Shown piece by piece: positions 53,649 through 64,000 of a stretch of DNA of 64,000 nucleotides. The notes beneath the pieces were generated by a model. It saw only the letters and a program-made list of their open reading frames with translations, was not told the DNA's origin and did no database searches. Every line of letters begins with the position of its first letter. The stretch's first letter is position 1. Position numbers and translations under genes: made by a program. The DNA comes from Planctomycetaceae bacterium (GTDB taxonomy: Bacteria; Planctomycetota; Planctomycetia; Pirellulales; UBA1268), in contig CANHCU010000005.1 in NCBI GenBank assembly GCA_947459185.1, positions 1 to 64,000 on the forward strand. The letters are read 5' to 3'.

Positions 53649-54310
53649 GGCTGCTCCCGGCTGCGACGGCATGCCTCGGCCAGCTCGGCCAATCGCTGCA
53701 CCACCTCCTCGGCTGACATTCCGTCGGTCTCCAGAAGCACGGCATCGTCGGCCTGCCGCATCGCGCCCACGGGCCGCGAGCAGTCTGCGTCATCCCGCCG
53801 CGACTGCGACTCGAGCACGGACTCGAGCGTCGGGGCATGGCCGCGGCCGAGTTCCTCGCGATGACGTCGCCGGGCACGCTCCGCGGGCGAGGCGGTGAGG
53901 AACACCTTCAGTTCCGCCTGCGGAAATACCACCGAGCCCTGATCGCGTCCCTCGGTGACGACATCGATCCCCTCCGCCATGCGGCGCTGGATCCGCTTCA
54001 TCGCCTCGCGGACCGGCGGGGCATCGGCCACCGGCCGCGTCGCCGCGGTGATCTCTTCTGTGCGGATTTCCACCGAGACGTCGCGGCCGTCAACGTTGAC
54101 GCGGCCATCGCGAAACTCGATGCGGACCTCCTCGGCAAGCACGGCGATGCGGGGCGAATCGTCGAGCGGGATGCCCCGTTCGAGCGCCGTCAGCGCCACG
54201 GCACGATACATCGCGCCGGTATCCATGTAGCACCAGCCCAGCCGGGTGGCGAGCGCGCGGGCGGCGGAACTCTTGCCGGCGCCGGCCGGCCCGTCGAGCG
54301 TGATGATCAT
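53645..54310 (-). CDS. cmk: Cytidylate kinase
   Basis: IITLDGPAGAGKSSAARALATRLGWCYMDTGAMYRA, VTEGRDQGSVVFPQAELKVFLTASPAERARRR. Confidence 0.96.
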   Translation of the reverse strand: MIITLDGPAGAGKSSAARALATRLGWCYMDTGAMYRAVALTALERGIPLDDSPRIAVLAEEVRIEFRDGRVNVDGRDVSVEIRTEEITAATRPVADAPPVREAMKRIQRRMAEGIDVVTEGRDQGSVVFPQAELKVFLTASPAERARRRHREELGRGHAPTLESVLESQSRRDDADCSRPVGAMRQADDAVLLETDGMSAEEVVQRLAELAEACRRSREQP

Positions 54311-56934
54311 CGGTGAAACTCCAGGTCAAGATGCCGCCACTGATACCGCTTGAGATCCAGCGTGATCGAACGTCCGTCGATTGTCACGCCATCCACGGCC
54401 GATGCGTGATCCACTCGATCGGAGAGCTGCCTGCCAGCAGCATCGCAGGGGACGGCCCGGGCCACCTCGGCGGCACATTCCAGCCGCACCTCGCCCGCAC
54501 GGCCGGCCGATTCCAGCAGGCCAATCCGCGCCGCCACGACGCGGCCTCCCTCCTGCCTCACCGGCCCGACCGTCAGGCGCACGTTGTCGGCGACCGCCGG
54601 CTCGGCCAACACCGTCCGAAACGACGCGGTGGGCGACTCCGCCAACAGGGCAGTCGCCAGATCCCAAGGCCGTTTGAGACCGACTCCGACCGCCAACCGG
54701 TGCACGAGGCGGCCAGCTGATCTCGTCGGCGGCTGATTCGGTGCTTCGATCGGTGGCTGGAATGGCAGGATCGAATCGAGCAGGTGGGGGCTTGATCGCA
54801 CATGCCACGGGAGGCCGCCGGTGAGAATCGCCACGCGTCCGTCGCGATCGTCCGGGCTGCTGAGTTCGATGAACCAGGGGGCCGTGAACCGTCCTCGCTC
54901 GGTGGCGATCGACTGCGTGTGCAGGCTGCGATGGAGGGCGACATCCTCGTTTTCGTTCCAGGCAAAGCGGCAGGCTAGATGCTGCTCGAAGAGTGGTCCC
55001 CTGGGAGGCTCGAAGCCCCGTGCCTCGATGTCGATCAGCGCCAGAGGCAGTCCGGCGACGAGTTCGATTCGCTGAATGAACGATCCCACCTCGCGGTCTT
55101 TGTCGGCGATCAGACGGCCGCGACTCTCAATCACCTCGCCTCGTCCCTCGGCAGCAGGAATCCGCCTGATCGAGTCGGCCCGCATGTCCGAATAAACAGC
55201 CCGTTCGCTGACGTCTTCCCACGGTGTGCCCGGCGAAGGCGACGGACGAGTCGTGCGCGCCGCCAGCCGCTGCGACAGCCGATTGCCGCGGTCGGTAGGC
55301 CGCCGGACGGAGAGCAGGCCACCGGTCTGCCGGTGCACCTGAATCCGCAGCGAAGCATGTTCGAGCACGAGGTCGTCGTCGGGCCGTCGGACCGCGTTCA
55401 ACAGCGTGCCGAGCCCCCAGCCGGAGCGACCGGCCCTGACCGCGGCCCGCGGTGCCTGGGCGACGACCGAGGAGGTTTCACGGTGGAGGATGTCGCCAAG
55501 CGACTCGCGGGCGGCCATCAGGCGGCGAGCCTCGCCGCGGGCTGCGGCGACGCGGCTGGCGACGGCGTCTTGATGGCTGACTTCCGTGGAGGCTGTCGAA
55601 GGTGCGGCGGGGAGTCCAACCGGAAAGACATCCGGCTCGAAGGAGACCACCGTGCCTGCACCCGCAGTGCGGCTGAACAGCTCGGGAGCCGTGACGAAGG
55701 TCCCCAGCACGGTGCTGGCGGCACCAATCCGCCGCAGCACGTCGAACCAGGGGCTGGCGGTGCCGGCGTGGTGGGCAAACTGGATGACGGCGGTGTGGTC
55801 GTGATCCATGGCATCGCCGATCCGCTCGGGCAGGGCGAGGATCGTCTGCGCGCGGCGGGCATCCAGCGGGGCCTGGGCAACCCCGTCGATGCAGGCACCA
55901 CCGGTGCCATCCCAACGGATGCGGCTGCCACCTGGATCGGGGAGCGCCGTGCCATCGAAAAGTGCCCAGATCACACCTGTGAAGCCGAGGCTGGTGAGCA
56001 GTTGCGGCAGGATCGCCGACGAACCGCCCGTCTGCTGGGCGTACGTGACAGGGACCGTGCCCACGATCTCCCGCCACACCGCGAGTCCGCGCTCGAACGA
56101 GCCGACGATCTCCTCGGGCGTGCACTCGTCGAGGAGCTGTGAGTCGTAGCGGCCGCCCGCCGGGGCGATCGTGCCGTCCGCAGACCGTTCCCGCACGCGG
56201 GCCAACGCCGCTGGATTGGTGGCCGCGAGCTTCTCGATCAGTCCACCGGTGGCGACCAGCGTCATCGGCACCGTCGCCTGAAGCTCGCCATCCAGCGCGT
56301 CGCCGAGCGTTGACTCGGCCAGCAGAACAATGTCGAGGATCCAGACATCCACCGGGTAGTAGTGTGCCCGCGTGGACTCGAGGAATCCGTAGCATTCCTT
56401 CAGGGCCGCTCGGGCTGCCTCCTCGTCGCCGCTGATCGCGGCCCTGGCCGCCCGCACGGTCGTGTCGGCGAAGTCGGTGCCATTCAGGTCGGCGGAGGAC
56501 CGCATCCGCTGCGCCACCAGTTCGGCAAGCAATGTGGCCAGTCCAAGGGCGTGGAATTCGTCCGCCAGCCGCCCGCCCGGAAGCGGCTCCGCAATCGGGG
56601 TATCGCCAGCCAGCGCGGCCGCCGCTGCCGTGACGATGTTCGGGTGGCCTGTAACGCCACGAACCCAGCACGATCCGGCCGTGCAGAGGGCGTCGGACTG
56701 CAGGGCGAATCGGTCATCCCACGGGGCGGGCACGATGCCCAGACTCGCGCGGTCGGCCGGCGGCAGGTCAACGCTTGCCCACCGAGGCACATCGCCCACG
56801 GTGGCGATCAGCCATGGGTGCCAGGCCGCTGTCCAGGCCGATAGCAACGCGTCGGCCTCCGCCTCATCCAGCCAGGTTGGAAAATCATGGAGGGAGTGGC
56901 AGGGAAGGAACACGGTGATGCGGTCGGGTTTCAT
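54307..56934 (-). CDS. Hypothetical protein, possible GH38/GH57-like (alpha-mannosidase-like) enzyme
   Basis: ITVFLPCHSLHDFPTWLDEAEADALLSAWTAAWHPWLI...; beta-sandwich-like C-terminus; 4-bp overlap with cmk. Start trimmed to MKPDRI at 56934. Confidence 0.6.
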   Translation of the reverse strand: MKPDRITVFLPCHSLHDFPTWLDEAEADALLSAWTAAWHPWLIATVGDVPRWASVDLPPADRASLGIVPAPWDDRFALQSDALCTAGSCWVRGVTGHPNIVTAAAAALAGDTPIAEPLPGGRLADEFHALGLATLLAELVAQRMRSSADLNGTDFADTTVRAARAAISGDEEAARAALKECYGFLESTRAHYYPVDVWILDIVLLAESTLGDALDGELQATVPMTLVATGGLIEKLAATNPAALARVRERSADGTIAPAGGRYDSQLLDECTPEEIVGSFERGLAVWREIVGTVPVTYAQQTGGSSAILPQLLTSLGFTGVIWALFDGTALPDPGGSRIRWDGTGGACIDGVAQAPLDARRAQTILALPERIGDAMDHDHTAVIQFAHHAGTASPWFDVLRRIGAASTVLGTFVTAPELFSRTAGAGTVVSFEPDVFPVGLPAAPSTASTEVSHQDAVASRVAAARGEARRLMAARESLGDILHRETSSVVAQAPRAAVRAGRSGWGLGTLLNAVRRPDDDLVLEHASLRIQVHRQTGGLLSVRRPTDRGNRLSQRLAARTTRPSPSPGTPWEDVSERAVYSDMRADSIRRIPAAEGRGEVIESRGRLIADKDREVGSFIQRIELVAGLPLALIDIEARGFEPPRGPLFEQHLACRFAWNENEDVALHRSLHTQSIATERGRFTAPWFIELSSPDDRDGRVAILTGGLPWHVRSSPHLLDSILPFQPPIEAPNQPPTRSAGRLVHRLAVGVGLKRPWDLATALLAESPTASFRTVLAEPAVADNVRLTVGPVRQEGGRVVAARIGLLESAGRAGEVRLECAAEVARAVPCDAAGRQLSDRVDHASAVDGVTIDGRSITLDLKRYQWRHLDLEFHR

Positions 56935-57378
56935 GCCGACGAGTTTAGCGAAAGCGGAAAGCGAAAAGTTGAACTTCTGGCCCGGTGGGCCGGGTGAACA
57001 CAAGCGACGTGCAGTCGCCAAGCAGGGGGCGGACAGGATGTCCGAGCCCGGCGCATGGAGGGGGGAGCCGGGATCGGCGGAAGCTCGACGAGCGTTGGAA
57101 TTTCGCCCTGCCAGGATTTGCACTGGTCATACGCCCCACGGCGAAAGTCCCCGCGAAGGAGACTTCTGCCGTCCTGGCGGTGCGTGACATGCGACCGCGA
57201 CCCGTCGGCACGGGCTTCGCAAACTCCCGGACACGTTGAAAACTTGCCGCGACGGGGGCCAGTGAAGAGGCCCGTTTGACACCCCGCGCACATCACTCGT
57301 AAAGTGTTGATAGAGAAGCGTTTGATACGCTTTTGAGTTCCGGTCGAATCGCATCCCAAGGATGTTTTGGAAACGGTC

Positions 57379-59547
57379 ATGGCCAGTGGTTCTTACGTGT
57401 GGGGAATCGATATCGGCAAATGCGCCTTGAAGGCGCTGAGGTGTCGCGTATCCACCGAGCCCAAAAAGCTCGAGGCCGTCGCCTGTGAGTACATCGAATA
57501 CCCGATGATCCTCACGCAGCCCGAGGCCGACCCGATCGAACTGGTGCAGTCGGCCCTCGAGCAACTCATCAGCCGCCACGACCTGAAGGGCGACAAGGTC
57601 GCCGTGTCAGTTCCCGGCAATCTCGGTCTGTCGAAGTTCATCAAGCTGCCGCCCATCGAGGCCAAGAAGATTCCCGACATCGTGAAGTACGAGGCTCGGC
57701 AGCAGATTCCATTTCCGCTCGAACAGGTGGTGTGGCGGTGGCAGCGGCTCGCCGGTGGGATGGAGGAAAGTGGGTTCGTGCTCGACGCCGAGGTGGCGCT
57801 GTTCGCGATGAAACGCGAACAGGTGTTCAAGGCCCTGGCTCCCCTCGCCCAGGCGGGCATCCACGTCGATGTTCTGCAGCTGGCACCGATCGCCTTGGCG
57901 AATATGGCGATATTCGACCAGTTGCCCGACCCGAAGACCCAGGATCCGGACCAGCCCGCCCCGTCGATCGCGCTGGTGTCGGTCGGGGTGGATTCGACCG
58001 ACCTGGTCGTCACCAACGGGCGACGGATCTGGCAACGGAGCATCCCATCGGGCGGCAGCAACTTCACCAAGGCCCTCGTGCAGGGAATGAAGCTCACGTT
58101 TACCAGGGCCGAAAACCTCAAGCGGAATGCCGTCAAGGCGGAAGATCCGAAGGCCGTCTTCAAGATGATGAAGCCGGTGTTCAATGAATTCGCCTCCGAA
58201 CTCCAGCGGTCGCTGAACTATTTCACCGGCACCGACCGCACGGCGACCATCGGCAAGGTGCTGCTGCTCGGAAATGCGACCAAGCTCCGCGGGCTGACGG
58301 ACTTCGTCGGACAGCAACTGCAGCTCGACGTGCAGCGGCTGGATAAGTTCAACGGATTGGAAGGGGCGTCGGTGCTGTCGAACCCGGCCTTCCGGGAGCA
58401 CCAGCTCGCGTTCGGAACCGCCTATGGCCTTGCCCTCCAGGCGGCGAACGTGGCGGACATCAGCACGAACCTGCTCCCTGATGAGATCGTTCGCGAACGC
58501 ATCATCGAATCCAAGAAGCCATGGGCCGTGGGTGCGCTGGTCGGGCTCCTGGCTGCCGCGCTGATCAATTTTTTCGGCATGTTCGCCGCCTGGACGGCTT
58601 ATGCCCCCGACCTCTACGCAGCCGCGTTCGGCAAGGCCGACGCCGTCAAAAAACAGTCGGCGGCGGCCACGGCGGCGATCGGCCAGGTGCGCGAACGGCA
58701 GGCAGCCGCCATCGCACAGCAGCAGTGGCTGGCGAAGGTGCAAAACCAGCGGTTCGAGGCGCTCGACATGGTGCGGGCAGTGCGGACGCTGCTGCCCCGC
58801 GATGAAGCGGGCGTCGTGCCGGAGAATCCGGCCGACCGGCAGGAGCTTCACATCGATCGCATGGATTGCCAGTTTTCCCCCGACCTTGCCGTCTGGTTTG
58901 GTGATTTGAAGCCGCAGTGGGCAGAAACCCATATTGCGGAGGATGCCGCGGCCGAACAAAAGGGAGCGGAGCCTCCGGAGGGTGCCGACAAACCTGCGGA
59001 TGGCGAGCAGCCCGCCGTCACTCCCGATGCGCCGGCCGGTGAGGCGGACGCCGGTGGAGAAACAGCCGGTGGAGATACGAAGACCGCGGTCACTGGTCCC
59101 ACCGGCCCCGGCTGGATCATCGAGTTGCGCGGCCATCACTTCCACAACGAACCGCGACACAAGCCTTTGGAGGGAGCGCAATTCCTGCGATCCACCCTCG
59201 TCAAAAACCTGATGGACGGCGATGGAAAGGTTACCGTTTCGGCCGGACCGCTGGCCGGACAGCAAGTGACCGTGTCCGAATTGGGCATTGGCTTCCCGAT
59301 CATCGTCGTGTCGTCGCGGATCAAGTCGGTGCGGATTCCGGTGGCAAACCTCAGCGAAGGCAGCGGTCGGCCCGCTGGAGGCATGCCTGGGGGGATGCCG
59401 ATGCGGCCCGGCACTGAGCCGACGCAGCCGCTTGAACCGCAGGATCTGTCGCTCAAGCGGTATGACTTCGTGCTCCAACTGTGTTGGCAGCCGCGGCCCG
59501 CCGGACAGGCTCCGCCACCGCCTGCTGCACCGGCCGCCGTTGAATGA
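57379..59547 (+). CDS. pilM: PilM-like ASKHA ATPase with TM and PilN-like C-terminal region
   Basis: YVWGIDIGKCALKALRC, DKVAVSVPGNLGLSKFIKLPPIEAKKIPDIVKYEARQQIPFPLEQVVW; TM WAVGALVGLLAAALINFFGMF; then coiled segment and WIIELRGHHFHNEP. Confidence 0.85.
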   Translation: MASGSYVWGIDIGKCALKALRCRVSTEPKKLEAVACEYIEYPMILTQPEADPIELVQSALEQLISRHDLKGDKVAVSVPGNLGLSKFIKLPPIEAKKIPDIVKYEARQQIPFPLEQVVWRWQRLAGGMEESGFVLDAEVALFAMKREQVFKALAPLAQAGIHVDVLQLAPIALANMAIFDQLPDPKTQDPDQPAPSIALVSVGVDSTDLVVTNGRRIWQRSIPSGGSNFTKALVQGMKLTFTRAENLKRNAVKAEDPKAVFKMMKPVFNEFASELQRSLNYFTGTDRTATIGKVLLLGNATKLRGLTDFVGQQLQLDVQRLDKFNGLEGASVLSNPAFREHQLAFGTAYGLALQAANVADISTNLLPDEIVRERIIESKKPWAVGALVGLLAAALINFFGMFAAWTAYAPDLYAAAFGKADAVKKQSAAATAAIGQVRERQAAAIAQQQWLAKVQNQRFEALDMVRAVRTLLPRDEAGVVPENPADRQELHIDRMDCQFSPDLAVWFGDLKPQWAETHIAEDAAAEQKGAEPPEGADKPADGEQPAVTPDAPAGEADAGGETAGGDTKTAVTGPTGPGWIIELRGHHFHNEPRHKPLEGAQFLRSTLVKNLMDGDGKVTVSAGPLAGQQVTVSELGIGFPIIVVSSRIKSVRIPVANLSEGSGRPAGGMPGGMPMRPGTEPTQPLEPQDLSLKRYDFVLQLCWQPRPAGQAPPPPAAPAAVE

Positions 59548-59611
59548 ACCCGCGAGTTCCCTCACGGCTCTCCTTTCCACCCACCCATTCTCGTCAGCAA
59601 GCGTCACCACC

Positions 59612-61102
59612 ATGGCCAAGACTTCCGTTGCCGACACGGCTCGTCCCTGGTTAGCACTGCTCGCCAAGCATCATTTCTGGCTCTTGTCGCTGGTGGTTCC
59701 GCTGGTTTTGCTGCCGCTGTTATTCGTGGCGCAAGGTCAGCTCACCACCCAGATCGAGGCGGTGAGAAGGGAAATCGAGGGGCACATCTCGGCGCTCAAG
59801 AGTGTGCGACAAATTCCGCAGCATCCCAACGACTCATGGGCCAACGACATCGATTCCAGCACCATGCGGGTGAAACGCGAAACGCTCGCCGAGTGGCGGA
59901 AGTTCTGGGACAGCCAGCAGGCGATCCGCGTCTGGCCCGACTCCCTGGGCCCCGATTTTGTGAAGGCGGCCGAGACGCTCAAGTCAGATGGCAAACTCTC
60001 GCCGCGGCTGCTCGAGCGGTATCAGGACGTGGTGCGGACGCTTGTCCGGGAACTGCCCACGCGGTTGGGTGTGGAAGATGCCATGAAGGACGCCTCCGAA
60101 ACAGGGCAATCGTCCCCAAACGTCCCGATGCAGCAGACCATTCGCCCGGAGATGATTCGGCCCGGTATGGGCCCGGCGGACGGGGTTTCAGAGGTGTCGC
60201 CCTATGTCGCGACGTGGAGTTCAGAGAACCAGCAGCGGATCTTCGCGTCGTTCAATTGGGACAAGAAGCCATCCACCGCCAAGGTCTTGCTGGCGCAGGA
60301 AGAATTGTGGGTCTACGACGCGTTGTGTGACGTGGTGGCACGCATCAACAAGCCGGCCACTGGTCCACACAACGCTGCGATCTCCACCATCGACGAACTC
60401 TACGTTGGGTATCCGGCCGCTGAGGACAACCCAGGTGGCGTCGGCGGTGGCCGGGTCATTCGCATAACGGCAAATCAAATGCCCGACGGAGTGCCGCCGG
60501 ACATGATGGGCCCAGGAGGCCCGGGTGCCGCCGCGGGAAGGCCGCCCAACCCACGGTTTGAAGGGGGCCAGACGGGGGCCGCAGGGATGGGCCCTCCGGG
60601 TGGCGAAGCGGGCGCGGCAGGGCCGGTGGATCCAGAAGAGATGCTGCGGAACTGGGTCTACGTTGACTTTACCGGCAAGCCCTTGGACGCCACGCAGTTG
60701 GGGGCCGCGGTCGATTGCCAGATGATCCACCTTATGCCATTTGTGTTGCGGGTCGTGATCGATCAACGGCAGATCGACGGCTTGCTGGTTTTGCTGGCCA
60801 CCGCCAAGGTCCCGATTGACGTTCGCCAGGTGCGGATCAACGCTCCGACCTCGGGACAGGGGGCTCAGAAGGCCGTCTGGGAAGACAATGCCGCCGTCAC
60901 CTCCGATGCGGGAAGGCTTTATGACGTGACCCTTGAACTCCGTGGCACGATCGGCCTGGCCACGCCGCCGAATGAGGGAACCGTCGGCCTGGAGCCTGGC
61001 CAGGGGGATCCGGTGGCCCCGACTGAGGCGGCCGAGAAGCCTGCTCCAGTTCCCAAGGCCGCTCTCTTCCATCGGCCTACGCGTCGGAGGATTGCGTCAT
61101 GA
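59612..61102 (+). CDS. Single-TM protein of the PilM-like locus, unknown function
   Basis: TM HHFWLLSLVVPLVLLPLLFVAQG followed by coiled region and Met/Pro/Gly-rich linker MMGPGGPGAAAGRPP...GMGPPGGEAGAAG. Confidence 0.75.
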   Translation: MAKTSVADTARPWLALLAKHHFWLLSLVVPLVLLPLLFVAQGQLTTQIEAVRREIEGHISALKSVRQIPQHPNDSWANDIDSSTMRVKRETLAEWRKFWDSQQAIRVWPDSLGPDFVKAAETLKSDGKLSPRLLERYQDVVRTLVRELPTRLGVEDAMKDASETGQSSPNVPMQQTIRPEMIRPGMGPADGVSEVSPYVATWSSENQQRIFASFNWDKKPSTAKVLLAQEELWVYDALCDVVARINKPATGPHNAAISTIDELYVGYPAAEDNPGGVGGGRVIRITANQMPDGVPPDMMGPGGPGAAAGRPPNPRFEGGQTGAAGMGPPGGEAGAAGPVDPEEMLRNWVYVDFTGKPLDATQLGAAVDCQMIHLMPFVLRVVIDQRQIDGLLVLLATAKVPIDVRQVRINAPTSGQGAQKAVWEDNAAVTSDAGRLYDVTLELRGTIGLATPPNEGTVGLEPGQGDPVAPTEAAEKPAPVPKAALFHRPTRRRIAS

Positions 61103-62955
61103 AAGCGCCTAAAATCGCGTTCAATAAGGATGCGGTGCTGTCGTTCCTGCTGCTGCATGGCGAGAAGGTCGTGGCCGCCATGGTCGCCCTGGCAGCCTGC
61201 GGCCTCGCGTGGGGCGGGGTCGGGGCGCTCCGGAACATGAGGCCCAAACCGGAGCAGCAGCCGCAAGCGATCATCGCCGATGCGGCGGCGACAGCCGAAC
61301 ACATCGAGGCTGTGAAGATCGCTCCAGACGATGAACTGACCAGCGAGAAGGGGCTCGCGGATACCGTAGCCCAATGGATCGCTCCGAAAATTGAACCAGC
61401 ACCCTCGCTGGCAATGTTCAACAAGCCTCTGTTTGGTGAACTTGCCCGGCGCAGCAGCCCCGATATTCTCCCCATCGAAGACCTGCGAGCCGTCGCGGGG
61501 GTCGCCATCTTGACACTGAAGCCCAAGCCGATCGGGGATCGACCGATCCCCGATCGCCCCCTCAATCTCGATGCCAACAACGCAGCCAAGCCCGCCAAGC
61601 CTCCGCGGGGCGGAGGCCGGGGTGGCCCAATGCAGCCGATGCAGCCACCTGACATGGGTCTGATGCCTCCCCAGCCTGACCCAGATGCCGTGCAAGGAAA
61701 GATCGTGCCGTATGTGCTCGTCACCGGTCTGATCCCCGTCGTCAAGCAGCAGGAAGAATATGAGCGGCGATTCAGAACAGCGAGCCTCCGCGACCCGAAG
61801 CTCGACACGGCAAGCTGGAGCAATTACCGGCTTGAGAAGACCGAGGTGCTGCCCGGCGCTGCCGAGAAGTGGACTCCGGTTGACATGAAAACCGTCGCCC
61901 GTCGCTACGCTGGCGACTGGGGGGGAATCCAGCCGGAACCGATGCTACCCCCACTGCTGCTTCCGCCTGAACTGGAGCGGCGGGATCCGGTGCAGTCGCC
62001 GCTGCCGTTCTGCATCCCGATGCCGCAGTTGGCAGAAGGTTCCTGGGGTTTCAACGCTCTGCATCCCTGGTTTGCCGATTTTCTTCAGCGCGATGCTGCC
62101 GCTCGCAAGACGCTGGCCGAGGCCGAGGCCGAGAAGGCGGCAGTGAACACGAATGTCTTCGGTGGAGCCACGGGCGGCCCGCCGACCGGTGGCTTCGGGC
62201 CGACGGGCACCGATGGGGCCGGGATAACGCCGGGAATGATGCCAGGCGCGGACGGGCAGGGCACTCAGGGCCCGCTGGGGCCGGAGTATCGCCTGTTCAG
62301 GTTCATCGATCTTTCGGTCATGCCGGGGCGGACATACCGCTACCGGGTCAAGGCGGTCTGTTGGAACCCGAATCTCAACATGCCGAGCCGTCACCTCGTG
62401 GACGCTGAGATCGCAAAACAGCCCACCCTCGAATCCCCCGAGAGTAACGCCACCTCGCCGGTTGTTGTGCCCGACGGCACCCGCATGCTCGTGCAGCCTC
62501 TGAAGAAGCAGGAACTCAAGCGACTGAAGCCAGGCACGGTGGCCACGATGATCCTCGGCGAAAAGCCAAACGGCGGTTCGCTTGCCTTGCGTTCGCTGCT
62601 GCTTGAGGCGGGAGGCATCGCCAACGTCGATCCGTCTCAGAACAAGCGTGGTGATGCCCGTTCGCGGGGCGATGCGATCGTCACCGACCGAGTGCTCCTC
62701 GACGTCCGCGGCAAACTCGAGGATCGCGCGGAGACGAGGACGGGCAAGCCGACGCCGCCGCCCGAGCCGCTTGAGATGATCTTTCTGCGGCCCGATGGCA
62801 CCTTCGAGGTCGCCTCCTCGGCGGATTCGCAACAGTCCATCGACCGTTATCAGCTCACGTTGCCGGCCGAAGACGCAGGAGCCGCGGCCGGCACCGGTCA
62901 GCCCCCGGCTGCAGGCGAGTCGCCGTTTGGCAACCCTTTCGCACCCAAAAGATAG
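61099..62955 (+). CDS. Single-TM protein of the PilM-like locus, unknown function
   Basis: TM KVVAAMVALAACGLAWGGVG; GGGRGGPMQPMQPPDMGLMPPQPDP linker; 4-bp overlap with the previous gene. Confidence 0.75.
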   Translation: MKAPKIAFNKDAVLSFLLLHGEKVVAAMVALAACGLAWGGVGALRNMRPKPEQQPQAIIADAAATAEHIEAVKIAPDDELTSEKGLADTVAQWIAPKIEPAPSLAMFNKPLFGELARRSSPDILPIEDLRAVAGVAILTLKPKPIGDRPIPDRPLNLDANNAAKPAKPPRGGGRGGPMQPMQPPDMGLMPPQPDPDAVQGKIVPYVLVTGLIPVVKQQEEYERRFRTASLRDPKLDTASWSNYRLEKTEVLPGAAEKWTPVDMKTVARRYAGDWGGIQPEPMLPPLLLPPELERRDPVQSPLPFCIPMPQLAEGSWGFNALHPWFADFLQRDAAARKTLAEAEAEKAAVNTNVFGGATGGPPTGGFGPTGTDGAGITPGMMPGADGQGTQGPLGPEYRLFRFIDLSVMPGRTYRYRVKAVCWNPNLNMPSRHLVDAEIAKQPTLESPESNATSPVVVPDGTRMLVQPLKKQELKRLKPGTVATMILGEKPNGGSLALRSLLLEAGGIANVDPSQNKRGDARSRGDAIVTDRVLLDVRGKLEDRAETRTGKPTPPPEPLEMIFLRPDGTFEVASSADSQQSIDRYQLTLPAEDAGAAAGTGQPPAAGESPFGNPFAPKR

Positions 62956-62959
62956 GCTG

Positions 62960-64000
62960 ATGTCTGCCGTGATGAGATTCTCTGACTTCGCTCCGAACTT
63001 TGCTCCAAGGTGGCCGGCCTGCCAGCTCCTCCGCCGTTGCGTCACCGCGGTCCTGGCCGCGGGCATCGTGCTCACAGCCGCGGCCGATGGCGTTGGCCAG
63101 GATGGCGACGCCCGCTTCGCGGGCTGGGCCAAGTTGGAGTCTGCGGCGGAGACCAGGAACTACCGGGAGGCCATGAAGGGCGGCGGGCCGTTCGACCAGG
63201 CTGCGCGAGGTTTTCTCGAGGAGATCGCGCTGCCGCAACTGGCCCTCGAGGCCAACCGCAGCACGATCGAAAGGATCCGCAAGCGGATGCGGGAATACCT
63301 GCTTGCCGATATCGCCAACGAGAAGGCGGCGGATGAAGCCCTCAAGGCCGCCATGTCATTCATGGAGACGCTCGCTGGCAAAGACGACGCCGATACGGTC
63401 GTGCGGGTCAACGCCATGCTGTTGATCGGTGAGTTGCAGTCGATGGATCGAAAGCCCTGGCAGCCCGCCGCGGCGGTGCTCGCCGGAGCGGCCGCAAACG
63501 CCGACCTGCCGAAGGCGGTGCGGATCGCAGCCTGTGTGGGCCTCGCCAGATACGTCGAAGCGACGAAAGGAGTCGCGGAGGAGCAACAACGGATGGCCGC
63601 AGTGGCAGTCCCCGCCATCACGGCGATACTGAACGAGCCCGCGAAGGAGCCGACGTCTCAGACGATGGCCGTCGAGAACGACTGGATGGCCGCGAGGTGT
63701 CTCTCGATGCTGCCGCAACTCGGCCAGCTATCGCCGGCGACCGCGGCGGACGTGGTTCGGATCCTCAATGAGGACAACCGCTCGATCAACGTACGAGTGC
63801 GGGCGGCGACCGCGTTGGCGGCTGCCGGCGGCCCGGACTCGAAGATCGACAAGGCTGCTGTCATCCAGTCGATCGGGGCGTTGGCTACCTCGGCTCTCGA
63901 GCGAGACGTGGCCGCTGCGGACAAACTCCTGCTGGATCGTCAATACAGCGGCACGTCTGGCCAGCCCCAGCCAGGCATGATGCCGCCGGGCATGATGCCG
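62960..64000 (+). CDS. Secreted alpha-helical protein of the PilM-like locus, truncated by the right window edge
   Basis: Read directly: MSAVMRFSDFAPNFAPRWPACQLLRRCVTAVLAAGIVLTAAADGVGQDGDARFAGWAKLESAAETRNYREAMKGGGPF..., open to 64000 ending GQPQPGMMPPGMMP; not in the ORF track because it has no stop in the window. Confidence 0.8.
   Translation, partial: MSAVMRFSDFAPNFAPRWPACQLLRRCVTAVLAAGIVLTAAADGVGQDGDARFAGWAKLESAAETRNYREAMKGGGPFDQAARGFLEEIALPQLALEANRSTIERIRKRMREYLLADIANEKAADEALKAAMSFMETLAGKDDADTVVRVNAMLLIGELQSMDRKPWQPAAAVLAGAAANADLPKAVRIAACVGLARYVEATKGVAEEQQRMAAVAVPAITAILNEPAKEPTSQTMAVENDWMAARCLSMLPQLGQLSPATAADVVRILNEDNRSINVRVRAATALAAAGGPDSKIDKAAVIQSIGALATSALERDVAAADKLLLDRQYSGTSGQPQPGMMPPGMMP

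What the first reader, a model, noticed from the sequence alone, without database searches (positions are those of the whole stretch)
57379..64000. PilM-like locus with three uncharacterised partners sharing Met/Pro/Gly-rich linkers
Seen: PilM-like ASKHA protein carrying a TM and an extra C-terminal domain, followed by three same-strand genes (two single-TM, one secreted). All four contain similar low-complexity segments (GGMPGGMPMRPG; MMGPGGPGAAAGRPP/GMGPPGGEAG; GPMQPMQPPDMGLMPPQP/GITPGMMPGADG; GQPQPGMMPPGMMP). Inference: PilM and PilN are fused and the downstream genes replace PilO/PilP in a lineage-specific pilus or type II-like secretion platform; the shared linkers may mediate assembly.
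Basis: partly seen in the sequence, partly recalled or inferred. Interest (0 to 1): 0.62.

Follow-up and report, generated by a model that had tools for sequence, protein, structure and literature searches.

The report
Planctomycete type IV pilus base
These four genes encode the inner-membrane half of a type IV pilus-like machine that is conserved across planctomycete bacteria and related to the Akkermansia Amuc_1098-1101 system; it matters because it is a testable candidate for the uncharacterised crater-and-fibre structures with which planctomycetes catch polysaccharides.

Summary
ORF1 (57379-59547) is PilM followed by a PilN-type 'NLLP' motif, a TM helix and a periplasmic part: a PilM-PilN fusion. 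ORF2 (59612-61102) is predicted by AlphaFold2 to have the Amuc_1100/PilO fold (the ten best PDB matches are all Amuc_1100, then PilO). ORF3 (61099-62955) is a single-TM protein with FN3/Ig-like parts, in PilP's position but without a solved relative. ORF4 (62960-64351, past the window end) is a secreted protein found at this locus only in this family. ORF1-2-3 is conserved throughout Pirellulales and recognisable across Planctomycetota. In many relatives a 1100-1650 aa secretin follows; in this genome its 982-aa orthologue lies on another contig, as do PilB-like and PilT-family ATPases and one PilC/GspF-type protein. So the pilus reading is largely right: a divergent type IV pilus alignment complex related to Akkermansia Amuc_1098-1101. 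The linkers are not conserved in sequence, but their composition co-varies among the partners of one locus more than expected from relatedness or from neighbouring genes. New variant of a known kind. The link to crateriform structures is a hypothesis. Interest 0.6.

The parts
57379..59547 (+). ORF1, PilM-PilN fusion (722 aa): PilM domain at residues 9-354
   Evidence: PF11104 1e-38, TIGR01175 over cut-off, Amuc_1101 family 3.5e-55 below cut-off; PDB PilM structures
58468..58479 (+). NLLP motif (residues 364-367), the PilN signature that binds PilM
   Evidence: profile aligned with the PilN peptide in PDB 5eou; kept in distant homologues
58528..58590 (+). TM helix of ORF1 (about residues 384-404), followed by the periplasmic part
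   Evidence: hydropathy
59356..59442 (+). Met/Pro/Gly linker of ORF1 (about residues 660-688)
59612..61102 (+). ORF2 (496 aa), Amuc_1100/PilO-like: TM, coiled coil, ferredoxin-like core
   Evidence: AlphaFold2 pLDDT 81; Foldseek: ten Amuc_1100 chains, then PilO
60443..60631 (+). disordered Met/Pro/Gly linker of ORF2 (about residues 278-340) inside the core
   Evidence: mostly low pLDDT; composition
61099..62955 (+). ORF3 (618 aa), single TM, beta domains with FN3/Ig-like resemblance, in PilP position
   Evidence: AlphaFold2 pLDDT 79; only insignificant FN3/Ig matches
61564..61683 (+). first Met/Pro/Gly linker of ORF3 (about residues 156-195)
   Evidence: low pLDDT
62161..62283 (+). second linker of ORF3 (about residues 355-395)
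   Evidence: low pLDDT
62960..64000 (+). ORF4, secreted protein (463 aa; continues to 64351), with a Met/Pro/Gly linker from about 63956; family-specific addition to the locus

Best explanation
The locus encodes the inner-membrane alignment subcomplex of a type IV pilus-like machine. ORF1 is PilM and PilN in one chain: the PilM domain would sit in the cytoplasm and bind its own NLLP peptide, and the TM leads into the periplasm. ORF2 is the PilO/Amuc_1100-type partner that would pair with the PilN part. ORF3 takes the place of PilP and would reach, through FN3/Ig-like domains on long flexible linkers, to the secretin. The secretin, extension and retraction ATPases and platform protein are encoded elsewhere in this genome. 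The disordered Met/Pro/Gly linkers most likely act as adjustable tethers. Shown: the gene set, PilM domain, NLLP motif, predicted fold of ORF2, conservation of the operon, orthology of the secretin. Inferred: complex formation, the role of ORF3, the filament, and its use (attachment to, or capture of, polysaccharide).
For: PilM domain; NLLP of ORF1 on the PilN peptide of 5eou; ORF2 fold and weak Amuc_1100 hits in 4 of 20 orthologues; ORF2 in 78 of 79 relatives; ORF1-2-3 in order in 19 of 20 fetched loci and 12 of 17 class- and phylum-level loci; a long secretin directly downstream in 15 loci outside the family, with which the single secretin of this genome is orthologous (41-45% over about 880-930 aa in the best four); ten Planctomycetia genomes with ORF2 all keep that secretin; PilB-like ATPase, three PilT-family ATPases over cut-off, one GspF/PilC-type protein in this genome.
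Against: No secretin, ATPase or pilin gene next to the locus in this genome. ORF3 shows no PilP fold or family match. The periplasmic fold of ORF1 was not predicted. The major pilin is not identified. Four genomes of the family show no secretin.
Confidence: 0.82

Rival explanations
1. The machine is a type II secretion-like (pseudopilus) system rather than a pilus: ORF1 acts as GspL, ORF2 as GspM, ORF3 as GspC and the large secretin as GspD, exporting enzymes.
For: GspL too joins an actin-like domain, a TM and a periplasmic domain; the platform protein scores best with GspF; GspE-like ATPases are present.
Against: No GspL, GspM or GspC family match to ORF1-3 at E up to 1; TIGR01175 PilM is over its cut-off; the NLLP motif is PilN's; three PilT-family ATPases; the secretin is distinct from the GspD-type secretins of relatives.
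Confidence: 0.13
2. In this family the locus is a relic: the secretin left, ORF4 came in, and the complex now has another envelope role without a filament.
For: The secretin gene is absent from the locus and ORF4 is there instead; four of 48 family genomes show no secretin.
Against: ORF2 is found in every genome of the family searched; 44 of 48 family genomes keep a secretin match, and this genome keeps the ATPases and platform protein; two of the four genomes without a secretin are over 90% complete, but all are drafts.
Confidence: 0.05

Closest known systems
Akkermansia muciniphila Amuc_1098-Amuc_1102 cluster (MUL2; PMC5332112, PMC4960237, PMC13174399)
   Same: PilM of the Amuc_1101 type, Amuc_1100-type fold next to it, secretin in the cluster; the same gene order if the cluster is read from 1101 to 1098.
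   Different: Below the curated equivalog cut-offs; proteins are much longer with linkers; ORF3 not shown to be Amuc_1099; no Amuc_1102 pilin found next to it; the secretin is large in relatives and unlinked here.
Type IVa pilus alignment complex PilM-PilN-PilO-PilP-PilQ
   Same: PilM domain, NLLP motif, PilO-like fold, secretin, PilB-like and PilT-family ATPases.
   Different: PilM and PilN in one chain; ORF3 has FN3/Ig-like parts and no PilP match; long disordered linkers.
Type II secretion platform GspL-GspM-GspC
   Same: Same general plan; GspL also joins an actin-like domain, TM and periplasmic domain.
   Different: No GspL, GspM or GspC family match; NLLP motif and PilT-family ATPases point to pili.

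Membership tests
Type IV pilus alignment complex | PilM domain | tested here: met
   PF11104 1e-38; TIGR01175 152.7 bits, cut-off 133
Type IV pilus alignment complex | PilN NLLP motif followed by a TM helix | tested here: met
   aligned with the PilN peptide in 5eou; hydropathy
Type IV pilus alignment complex | PilN periplasmic ferredoxin-like fold | not tested
Type IV pilus alignment complex | PilO-like fold | tested here: met
   by prediction only: Amuc_1100 then PilO are the best PDB matches; no PilO family match by sequence
Type IV pilus alignment complex | PilP | tested here: not met
   no family match and no PilP among the 50 best folds listed; so the complex is filed as a divergent variant, not as canonical PilMNOP
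Type IV pilus alignment complex | secretin, PilB, PilT and PilC in the genome | tested here: met
   present but unlinked; PilB match just under its cut-off, platform protein below the cut-offs of GspF and PilC models
Type IV pilus alignment complex | major pilin assembled into a filament | not testable with these tools
   57 prepilin-like N termini in the genome; none assigned
Amuc_1098-1102 (MUL2) | Amuc_1101 equivalog | tested here: not met
   best match, 188 bits, but cut-off 650
Amuc_1098-1102 (MUL2) | Amuc_1100 fold | tested here: met
   sequence match weak
Amuc_1098-1102 (MUL2) | Amuc_1099 | tested here: inconclusive
   one of 20 orthologues at E 0.036, none of 48 in the larger set
Type II secretion platform | GspL/GspM/GspC families | tested here: not met
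   no such Pfam or NCBIfam match to ORF1-3 at E up to 1

The most novel reading that the evidence does not exclude
This complex with its large secretin is the core of the planctomycete crateriform structure and its 12-nm dextran-binding fibres, which fasten outer to inner membrane and take polysaccharide into the periplasm; its subunits are held together by disordered linkers whose composition evolves in concert.
Probability: 0.25. Interest if true: 0.85.

Novelty: new variant of a known kind. Interest (0 to 1): 0.6.

Why it matters
Boedeker et al. 2017 (PMC5394234) left the planctomycete crateriform structures, their pili-like fibres and the macromolecule uptake system as still to be characterised. 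An operon recognisable across the phylum, for an inner-membrane pilus base with an unusually large secretin, gives named genes to delete in a genetically tractable planctomycete. It also places Amuc_1100, known as an immune-active Akkermansia protein, as one case of a PilO-like part of a pilus machine that environmental planctomycetes also have, beyond the Verrucomicrobiales in which synteny was reported (PMC13174399).

Tried and rejected
ORF4 as the split-off N terminus of the large secretin: rejected (no profile match, HHalign probability 0.4%). ORF3 as Amuc_1099 by sequence: one weak hit, none in a larger set. Direct PDB sequence searches with ORF2 or ORF3: only chance matches. Linker similarity as recent DNA exchange in the window: not supported (11-12 nt shared words between non-overlapping ORFs; the longest shared words in several other loci are artefacts of overlapping gene calls, while three loci do share 26-29 nt repeats). 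Deep-relative ORF2/ORF3 proteins against Pfam and NCBIfam: nothing significant. A genome-contig scan with the ORF2 alignment failed for lack of conserved stretches; ORF1 was used instead.

Full report
What is there. The window is bases 1-64000 of a 73,406-base contig of a 4.09-Mb, 226-contig genome. Four + strand genes lie close together: ORF1 57379-59547, ORF2 59612-61102, ORF3 61099-62955 (overlapping ORF2 by the ATGA of its start) and ORF4 62960-64351, which leaves the window. A convergent 590-aa gene, by inspection an acetolactate synthase large subunit, follows. The spacing suggests one operon (inference).

The organism. Named relatives of ORF1 in genome contigs are MAGs called Pirellulales and Planctomycetaceae, and the cultured Aeoliella straminimaris and Botrimarina hoheduenensis. 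I take the organism to be a member of Pirellulales (inference).

ORF1. PilM is secure: PF11104 1e-38, TIGR01175 above its cut-off, PDB PilM structures. A profile of 20 orthologues aligns through the end of PDB 5eou, a PilM-PilN chimera, so that the NLLP of ORF1 falls on the NLLP of the PilN peptide. The motif is followed by a TM helix and recurs in slightly varied form in distant relatives (INLLP, INLMP, INLVP). ORF1 is thus PilM and PilN in one chain. NCBIfam's Amuc_1101 family is the best match (3.5e-55, residues 43-476), well below its equivalog cut-off; the same family is best for the distant homologues in L210 and L213. I did not predict the fold of the periplasmic part.

ORF2. No family matches the window protein significantly. 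AlphaFold2 with 57 sequences gave pLDDT 81, pTM 0.73: a TM helix, a long coiled coil, and an alpha-beta, beta-alpha-beta-beta core broken by a disordered linker. Foldseek's ten best PDB matches are all Amuc_1100 (E 7.5e-4 to 0.07, probability 0.96-1.00; one of them below 0.001), followed by PilO of the type IVa pilus model 3jc8 and of Pseudomonas. TM-scores are 0.53-0.61 by target and only 0.22-0.25 by query, because of the linkers and coil. Independently, four of 20 orthologues hit the Amuc_1100 NCBIfam model weakly, more than any other model.

ORF3. AlphaFold2 with 48 sequences gave pLDDT 79, pTM 0.68, with beta domains that resemble FN3/Ig folds at insignificant E-values (0.039 and up) and no PilP among the 50 matches listed. 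By position and topology it stands where PilP stands; membership in PilP is not claimed.

ORF4. A signal-like N-terminal segment and no Pfam family above cut-off. It adjoins ORF3 in the window's family; weak homologues elsewhere in the order were found, none of those I could compare lying near ORF3. It is not the lost N terminus of the secretin.

Conservation. ORF2 was found in 78 of 79 relatives, across about 20 families. In 20 fetched loci the automatic calls give ORF1-ORF2-ORF3 in order in 19; in the exception, L043, a long opposite-strand ORF was called where ORF3 should be. A profile of 57 ORF2 sequences hits 50 of 244 genomes of the phylum. Of 17 loci then fetched, 12 have all three genes together by profile, in Planctomycetia and in deeper branches; two of the deep ones (L210, L211) have the compact order PilM - ORF2 - ORF3 - secretin.

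The secretin. Outside the window's family, 15 loci carry a long secretin-profile protein close downstream, confirmed by PF00263 for L049, L055 and L058 (L051 in the same call is an RND transporter, not a secretin). This genome has one secretin protein, 982 aa, on contig 7. BLAST joins it with the long secretins: 41-45% over roughly 880-930 aa with four of them, and 36-67% in two long pieces with the others, whereas GspD-type secretins of the relatives match only short C-terminal stretches. Ten Planctomycetia genomes tested all have a 1447-1728 aa reading frame of this kind. The simplest reading is that in the window's family the secretin gene left the locus and ORF4 joined it. In some other genomes too (G052, G053, G061, G063, G070) the long secretin lies apart.

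The rest of the machine. In this genome: a PilB-like ATPase (619.9 bits, cut-off 675.65), three PilT-family ATPases above cut-off, further GspE-like ATPases, one GspF/PilC-type protein, and 57 prepilin-like N termini. No separate PilN was found. PilT-family ATPases and the PilM/NLLP pair favour a pilus over a type II system.

The linkers. They vary in length and residues between species, so no motif is conserved. But composition is matched within a locus. In 37 diverse loci the ORF2-ORF3 similarity is 0.729 against 0.578 (sd 0.016) after permutation; ORF1-ORF2 and ORF1-ORF3 also exceed all 2000 permutations. Against the nearest relative's locus, which controls in part for ancestry, ORF2-ORF3 within-locus similarity is 0.708 against 0.651 (42 of 60 loci, Wilcoxon p = 2.3e-4); pairs with ORF1 are weaker (p = 0.016-0.073). 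With segments limited to G/P-rich, poorly hydrophobic ones, the three partners still match (z 5.9-9.6), and segments of neighbouring ORFs do not (z -0.2 to -0.6). ORF4 matches ORF2 and ORF3 (p 0.0005-0.02), ORF1 not clearly (p 0.11); the secretin matches in the looser test and not in the stricter one (7-8 loci). Limits: crude gene calls, few controls, species not independent, thresholds chosen by me and three versions of the test run. The result says that the linkers of these partners evolve in concert; it does not say why.

Known work. Amuc_1098-1102 encode abundant envelope proteins, with Amuc_1098 a secretin (PMC5332112, PMC4960237). A 2026 paper calls amuc_1099-1102 MUL2, a type IV-like pilus system for attachment to glycans, and reports synteny in Verrucomicrobiales (PMC13174399); its two mentions of planctomycetes are in its reference list. 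Planctomycete crateriform structures carry 12-nm pili-like fibres that bind dextran, and appear to connect outer and inner membrane (PMC5394234); type IV pili were suggested for appendages of related strains from microscopy (PMC8303584). My searches found no paper that describes this planctomycete operon, in an open-access library only.

Verdict. A divergent type IV pilus alignment complex, recognisable across the phylum and related to the Akkermansia system, with a PilM-PilN fusion, an Amuc_1100-like PilO, an unfamiliar third subunit and, in relatives, a very large secretin. New variant of a known kind. The identification with crateriform structures is a hypothesis, at about 25%.

Noticed in passing
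L002:7385-9157 (-), window coordinates 64385-66157: A convergent 590-aa gene, by inspection acetolactate synthase large subunit, follows ORF4; a gene of about 590 aa sits in the same place in many loci of the family.
   Followed up: no
window 54307-57123 (-): A divergent 938-aa ORF of unknown identity lies upstream of ORF1; ORFs of similar size and strand precede ORF1 in several relatives.
   Followed up: no
L068, L075, L085 and others: MAG records titled Candidatus Kuenenia stuttgartiensis or Planctomicrobium piriforme carry loci up to 97% identical to this Pirellulales-type ORF1; the species names look misassigned.
   Followed up: no
G006, G008, G037, G045: Four genomes of the window's family show no secretin match although ORF2 is present; two of them (G006, G008) are 92% complete. 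Gap in a draft or real loss was not settled.
   Followed up: no
G000, whole genome: 57 prepilin-like N-terminal methylation motifs, scattered over many contigs, against a single GspF/PilC-type protein and a single secretin.
   Followed up: partly
L052, L053, L147: ORF2 and ORF3 share exact DNA words of 26-29 nt within glycine- or methionine-rich linkers, so repeat exchange may contribute to linker matching in some loci.
   Followed up: no
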